Source of the DNA: Micromonospora sp. WMMD980
Lineage (GTDB): Bacteria > Actinomycetota > Actinomycetes > Mycobacteriales > Micromonosporaceae
Length of the DNA: 64,000 bases
Direction: 5' to 3'
Assembly (NCBI RefSeq): GCF_029626035.1
Contig: NZ_JARUBE010000003.1
Location: 4,836,001-4,900,000 of the forward strand
The translations under genes and the position numbers were made by a program. This document shows positions 63,774 to 64,000 of the stretch, piece by piece (position 1 is the stretch's first letter; each line of letters begins with the position of its first letter). The notes under the pieces are model-generated. The model ran no database searches, had not been told where the DNA came from, and saw only the letters and a list, made by a program, of their open reading frames with translations.

Positions 63774-64000
63774 CCGATGAGCTCCTTCTCGTCCCGGCGA
63801 TCGGCAAGTGCGGGGTGCGCGCGCAGCTTCGCCAGGCCCTTGCTGGCCTGGCTCTTGACGGTGCCGACGCTGATGCCGAGCGTCTCGGCGATCTGCGTCT
63901 CGGTGAGGTCCTCGAAGTAGCGCAGCACGAGGACCGCCCGCTACCGCCGCGGAAGCTCGGCGAGCATCCGCCACAACGCGTCCCGCTCGACGTACTGCGT
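63770..64000 (-). pseudogene. SigE-family sigma factor, 3' part, interrupted by TAG
   Basis: The minus strand at the right edge encodes region 4 of an ECF sigma factor: RDALWRMLAELPRR, then a TAG at 63941-63943, then RAVLVLRYFEDLTETQIAET and SVGTVKSQASKGLAKLR, ending TGA at 63770-63772. The family almost always reads PxRQRAVLVLRYFEDL here, so TAG (CAG in related genes) is one substitution away from Gln. The rest of the gene lies outside the window. Possible readings are a nonsense mutation, a sequencing error or suppression. Confidence 0.75.

What the first reader, a model, noticed from the sequence alone, without database searches (positions are those of the whole stretch)
63941..63943. In-frame amber codon at the conserved Gln of sigma region 4
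The reading frame is continuous and strongly family-like on both sides of the TAG, and the missing residue is the Gln of the PRQRAVLVLRYFEDL block. Truncation there would remove the -35 recognition helix-turn-helix and leave a sigma fragment co-transcribed with its ATGA-overlapping partner. A downstream GTG could allow reinitiation of a region-4-only protein.
Basis: partly seen in the sequence, partly recalled or inferred. Interest (0 to 1): 0.75.

Follow-up and report, generated by a model that had tools for sequence, protein, structure and literature searches.

The report
Amber-truncated ECF sigma factor gene
A gene for a stress-type transcription factor in an actinobacterium related to Micromonospora humi carries a single premature stop codon that its relatives lack, most likely an ordinary recent loss of that gene rather than a new mechanism.

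Summary
On the minus strand, window 63943-63941 is an in-frame TAG in a SigE-family ECF sigma gene. The window cuts the gene off; the genome record completes it (TTG start at C3:4900276). Codons 1-111 carry region 2, codon 112 is TAG, codons 113-168 carry most of region 4. The original TGA overlaps (ATGA) a 381-codon membrane-protein gene. Of the 120 best-listed homologues, 118 have Gln at this column and 2 have Met. The two orthologues found (95% and 82% DNA identity) and 36 other homologous loci all have a Gln codon there, so the stop belongs to this lineage or this assembly. Recoding is not supported: none of the 52 tRNA matches has a CUA anticodon, and TAG ends 6 of 39 neighbouring genes in both this genome and its closest relative. 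A split sigma is not supported: the GTG after the stop has an unremarkable ribosome site and starts inside region 4. Promoter-like sequence, start, remaining frame and partner show no other damage. Best reading: a recent nonsense mutation disabling an otherwise intact, probably self-activating ECF operon. A consensus error cannot be excluded. Low interest.

The parts
63770..64000 (-). 3' part of the SigE-family ECF sigma gene with the in-frame TAG. The gene continues past the window end to its TTG start at G000:C3:4900276 (extended window position 64276).
63941..63943 (-). In-frame TAG at codon 112, a column that is Gln in 118 of 120 listed homologues and Met in 2
63773..63940 (-). Region 4 remnant after the stop (56 sense codons), matching Pfam Sigma70_r4 and Sigma70_r4_2
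63770..63928 (-). Hypothetical reinitiation frame from GTG (52 aa); ribosome site unremarkable
62628..63773 (-). Partner gene, 381 codons, ATGA overlap with the sigma frame. One predicted membrane helix near residues 41-62 and no Pfam, NCBIfam or PDB match. Intact and 381 codons long in all three orthologous loci.

Best explanation
A single nonsense substitution, private to this strain or lineage, has disabled a SigE-family (ECF) sigma factor gene. Shown: the frame, the domain anatomy, an intact coding sequence in both orthologues found, a conserved ECF-type promoter-like sequence upstream, an intact partner gene, and no CUA anticodon among the tRNA matches. Inferred: ribosomes stop at codon 112 and release a region 2 fragment that cannot recognise a -35 element. 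The operon then loses the positive autoregulation that its promoter suggests. The partner, probably the cognate membrane anti-sigma or sensor, may still be made at a low level from its own ribosome site. The lesion is young, because nothing else in the operon has visibly decayed.
For: The two orthologues found among the 160 genus genomes held (G073, i.e. Micromonospora humi, 95% DNA; G112, 82%) have a Gln codon and an open frame. All 38 other homologous loci examined (those two, 35 more from other genomes, one own-genome paralogue) have a Gln codon (37 CAG, 1 CAA). The column is Q in 118 and M in 2 of the 120 listed proteins. Besides the stop, four substitutions in codons 1-153 are assigned to this lineage: 3 synonymous and 1 non-synonymous. 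dN/dS against G073 is 0.23 for sigma and 0.31 for the partner, which is 381 codons in all three. GGCAACC-17-CGTA lies upstream in all three orthologues, matching the AAC/CGT signature given for ECF promoters (PMC8103513, passages read). No CUA anticodon among 52 tRNA matches. TAG ends 6 of 39 genes in both genomes; two of the six are short, doubtful frames.
Against: The near absence of other decay is also what a consensus error, or a stop codon tolerated by some recoding, would look like. No reads and no second strain of the species were available. Only three orthologous loci exist for polarising changes, so selection after the stop cannot be measured. The dN/dS after the stop is higher (0.45 against 0.12 before it), but it rests on only 4 non-synonymous differences, of which one is assigned to this lineage, two to G073 and one was not polarised.
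Confidence: 0.84

Rival explanations
1. Consensus or assembly error: the living strain has a sense codon and an intact sigma factor.
For: One substitution in an otherwise healthy gene. The assembly has three small contigs partly redundant with the ends of C3, and a segment of about 2.3 kb present in C1 and C2 but not at the matching place of C3, so the data were not fully reconciled.
Against: Redundant contig overlaps agree almost perfectly: C1-C3end 12747 bp, C1-C3start 8763 bp and C2-C3start 8531 + 8162 bp, with 1 mismatch and no gaps in all. They may share reads and partly cover the same bases, so this is a weak control. Taking 1 in about 38 kb at face value over 6.8 Mb, and about one substitution in twenty making a stop (my assumption), fewer than ten false stops would be expected genome-wide; I recall, without a call, that real nonsense pseudogenes usually outnumber that.
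Confidence: 0.11
2. The stop splits the sigma factor into two working parts: a region 2 protein, and a region 4 protein made by reinitiation at GTG 63928, like the two-subunit SigO-RsoA of Bacillus subtilis.
For: Both halves keep recognisable domains. An in-frame GTG lies 12 bases after the TAG. A split sigma exists in nature (PMC8103513, passage read).
Against: No relative shows the split (0 of 38 other loci). The GTG ribosome site is ordinary. The second product would lack the strongly conserved start of region 4 (LPxRQRAV).
Confidence: 0.03
3. TAG is read through, by a suppressor tRNA or by programmed readthrough, so that a little full-length sigma is made and feeds its own promoter.
For: Frame open on both sides and an ECF-type promoter-like sequence kept. 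ECF switches can work at low protein levels (general knowledge).
Against: 0 of 52 tRNA matches have a CUA anticodon (a tRNA too degenerate for the RF00005 search at E 0.001 would be missed). TAG ends 6 of 39 neighbouring genes in both this genome and G073, two of the six being short, doubtful frames. Relatives do not share the TAG.
Confidence: 0.02

Closest known systems
SigE-family ECF sigma factors (TIGR02983) and their pseudogenes
   Same: Same family and domain order, overlapping membrane-protein partner, AAC/CGT-type sequence upstream. Disrupted copies also occur elsewhere in the genus: 2 of 85 matches carry a stop, this one and one in G017, where family similarity ends after IGTVK and a TAG follows two codons later (cause not tested).
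   Different: Here the lesion is one nonsense codon at the conserved Gln, with family-like sequence continuing to the normal end.
[quoted passage not shown]
   Same: Regions 2 and 4 would be on separate polypeptides if reinitiation occurred.
   Different: SigO and RsoA are separate proteins that together start transcription (PMC8103513, passage read). Here a single codon separates the halves, in one genome only, with no sign of selection for two products.

Membership tests
ECF sigma factor, SigE family (gene as inherited) | Full-length match to TIGR02983 above the curated cut-off | tested here: met
   181.8 bits against 141.55 with the stop as X; the halves alone score 100.9 and 67.2 and miss it
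ECF sigma factor, SigE family (gene as inherited) | Regions 2 and 4 present | tested here: met
   Pfam Sigma70_r2 before the TAG, Sigma70_r4 after it
ECF sigma factor, SigE family (gene as inherited) | AAC / CGT sequence upstream, suggesting autoregulation | tested here: met
   GGCAACC-17-CGTA upstream in all three orthologues. The genome-wide pattern is not enriched (12 sites, 14 in the reversed control). Transcription not tested.
ECF sigma factor, SigE family (gene as inherited) | Partner is a cognate anti-sigma factor | tested here: inconclusive
   Overlapping membrane-protein gene, no Pfam, NCBIfam or PDB match
Active sigma factor in this strain | Uninterrupted frame through region 4 | tested here: not met
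   TAG at codon 112
Split (two-subunit) sigma factor | Division conserved in relatives | tested here: not met
   0 of 38 other loci carry it
Split (two-subunit) sigma factor | Second product translated from its own start | tested here: inconclusive
   GTG with unremarkable ribosome site; no protein data
Amber recoding | tRNA with CUA anticodon | tested here: not met
   None among 52 RF00005 matches at E up to 0.001
Amber recoding | TAG not used as an ordinary terminator | tested here: not met
   TAG ends 6 of 39 neighbouring genes in both genomes, two of the six being short, doubtful frames

The most novel reading that the evidence does not exclude
One nonsense substitution has turned a single-chain ECF sigma factor into a separately translated region 2 protein and region 4 protein that still cooperate. 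That would be a nascent two-subunit sigma factor caught at its origin.
Probability: 0.03. Interest if true: 0.6.

Novelty: new member of a known kind. Interest (0 to 1): 0.1.

Why it matters
As found, it is a textbook case of gene loss by a nonsense codon. Its use is practical: annotation should call this sigma gene a pseudogene, and regulon predictions for this strain should not count on it. If the codon is polymorphic within the species, it would be a clean natural knock-out of one SigE-family sigma for comparison with M. humi.

Tried and rejected
Suppressor tRNA: all 52 RF00005 matches of the genome were covered (30 loci plus 18 stretches covering the other 22). ARAGORN anticodons contain no CTA. 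The window itself holds no tRNA gene.

Different true frame: rejected. Both domain halves lie in the same frame. I did not test the other overlapping frames one by one.

Shared TAG in relatives: rejected for the genomes held. Truncated homologue in the protein database: the 120 listed proteins (of 7783 matches) are all at least 162 aa long, so no independent record of the truncated form was seen. A 90% cluster could still hide one.

Upstream disruption by the neighbouring island: considered as the reason the gene decayed. The region upstream of the -35-like box differs among all three genomes, but the promoter-like sequence itself is kept, so the island does not obviously silence the gene.

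Regulon search: GGCAACC-16/18-CGTA is no commoner than its reversed control (12 against 14), so no regulon could be drawn from it.

Paper searches: SigO and RsoA with sigma factor, stop codon readthrough with Streptomyces and UAG, ECF sigma factor with Micromonospora or SigE family, ECF classification terms. I saw only the listings with the starts of abstracts, apart from passages of PMC8103513. Nothing on this gene appeared in those listings.

Full report
Observation. The window is G000:C3:4836001-4900000 of a 6.83 Mb, four-contig assembly. On the minus strand, bases 63943-63941 read TAG. The window ends inside the gene, so I fetched the flank (L009; L009 position = window position minus 60000). 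The complete frame starts at TTG (L009 4276) behind GGAGGAGGA, the best ribosome site of the four starts scored (-11.8). It runs 111 codons, TAG, 56 sense codons and TGA, and the TGA overlaps the ATG of the next gene as ATGA. The part before the stop matches Pfam Sigma70_r2 and the part after it matches Sigma70_r4. Read with X at the stop, the whole passes NCBIfam TIGR02983 SigE-fam_strep. An intact database homologue (P0001) finds ECF sigma factors as its best solved structures.

The residue. In an alignment of the 120 listed best of 7783 database homologues, the column holds Q in 118 and M in 2.

Relatives. The 160 genomes held for the genus were searched. Only G073 and G112 give DNA matches that extend into the partner gene, at 95% and 81-82% identity; I take these two as the orthologues. 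Both have a Gln codon and an open frame. I read the column in 39 loci: L010 (this gene), one own-genome paralogue, and 37 loci of other genomes. This gene has TAG; the other 38 have a Gln codon, 37 CAG and 1 CAA. Among 85 protein matches in the genus at E <= 1e-46, two contain a stop: this one, and a more distant homologue in G017 whose family similarity ends after IGTVK, two codons before a TAG. Within the own genome, 2 of 26 sigma-like matches contain stops: this one, and a weaker match with two TGA. Lesions in this family are thus uncommon but not unheard of.

State of the rest of the operon. Against G073, sigma has 9 synonymous and 6 non-synonymous differences (dN/dS 0.23) and the partner has dN/dS 0.31. 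With G112 as outgroup over codons 1-153, this lineage carries the stop, three synonymous changes and one non-synonymous change. G073 carries four synonymous changes and two non-synonymous base changes in one codon. Three further differences could not be polarised. The dN/dS after the stop (0.45) exceeds that before it (0.12), on four non-synonymous differences: one on this lineage, two on G073, one beyond codon 153 and not polarised. The partner is 381 codons in all three genomes, has one predicted membrane helix, and matches no Pfam, NCBIfam or PDB entry. Calling it an anti-sigma factor rests on position and topology only.

Promoter. GGCAACC, 17 bases, CGTA begins 59 bases before the TTG. It is kept in all three orthologues, although the DNA further upstream differs among them. 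Of the 35 more distant loci of other genomes, I count by eye 18 with GCAACC in the same region, followed by GGTA or GGTAG; the other 17 have a different sequence there. A review says that ECF sigma factors were at first characterised by AAC -35 and CGT -10 boxes, a co-transcribed anti-sigma factor and, with exceptions, positive autoregulation, and that the definition was later narrowed to having only regions 2 and 4 (PMC8103513, passages). The inference is that this operon was self-activating and that losing region 4 silences it.

Recoding and splitting. The 52 tRNA matches contain no CUA anticodon. In the syntenic 80 kb of G073, 63 genes were predicted mechanically and 49 matched this genome at over 80% identity. 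Three of the 49 have an in-frame stop here: this sigma, a doubtful 95-codon frame, and one hit in a 454-codon gene that I did not follow. In the reverse direction 2 of 45 matched genes do. For the 39 genes of the first direction whose end aligns, the stop pairs are 32 TGA/TGA, 6 TAG/TAG and 1 TAA/TAA; in the reverse direction 31 TGA/TGA, 3 TAG/TAG, 1 TAA/TAA and one TAG where G073 reads CAG, which fits this gene. Two of the six TAG genes are short, doubtful frames (95 and 93 codons). TAG therefore looks like an ordinary stop here. The in-frame GTG after the TAG has a ribosome-site energy matched or beaten by 12% of 2602 window GTGs, and its product would lack the LPRRQRAV segment.

Error or mutation. 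No reads are available. The small contigs overlap the ends of C3. C1-C3end (12747 bp), C1-C3start (8763 bp) and C2-C3start (8531 and 8162 bp) agree with one mismatch and no gaps. The overlaps may share reads, so this only suggests a good consensus. I judge a real nonsense mutation several times likelier than an error, and any working recoding or split unlikely.

Verdict. A real feature of the sequence, correctly described, with an ordinary explanation.

Noticed in passing
L009 about 4930 to L102 about 3390 (G000:C3 about 4900930-4909390), just outside the window: An island of about 8.4 kb sits between the sigma gene and tRNA-Thr(CGT) (L102 3355-3429), flanked by 37-base repeats of the tRNA 3' end, and is absent from G073. 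It encodes a 1230-aa protein with a caspase domain and a MkoA/MkoC-like helicase, and (partly seen) a DpdE/ZorD-like SNF2 helicase, so it looks like a defence island. I did not search for an integrase.
   Followed up: partly
G000 contigs C1, C2, C4 and both ends of C3: The three small contigs are partly redundant with the ends of C3 (about half of C4 matched nothing compared; C2 was read to base 19000 of 19724). A segment of about 2.3 kb lies in C1 and C2 where C3 has none, at C3:10127-10131, with a 5-base overlap at the junction in C2, which suggests a polymorphic mobile element in the sequenced culture.
   Followed up: partly
Upstream of the sigma -35-like box (L009 about 4340-4880): The DNA between the predicted -35 box and the tRNA-Thr side differs in all three orthologous genomes, with the strong homology ending almost at the -35 box.
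   Followed up: partly
window 33044-33328: A 95-codon frame open in G073 has an internal TAG here. It looks like a shadow frame rather than a gene, a judgement by eye.
   Followed up: partly
L024 (G017:C1:441545-441961): A more distant SigE-family homologue loses family similarity inside region 4, after IGTVK and just before the usual SQASR segment, with a TAG two codons later; cause not tested.
   Followed up: partly
G000:C3:1241433-1241870: Another sigma-like match in the same genome contains two TGA codons in frame.
   Followed up: no
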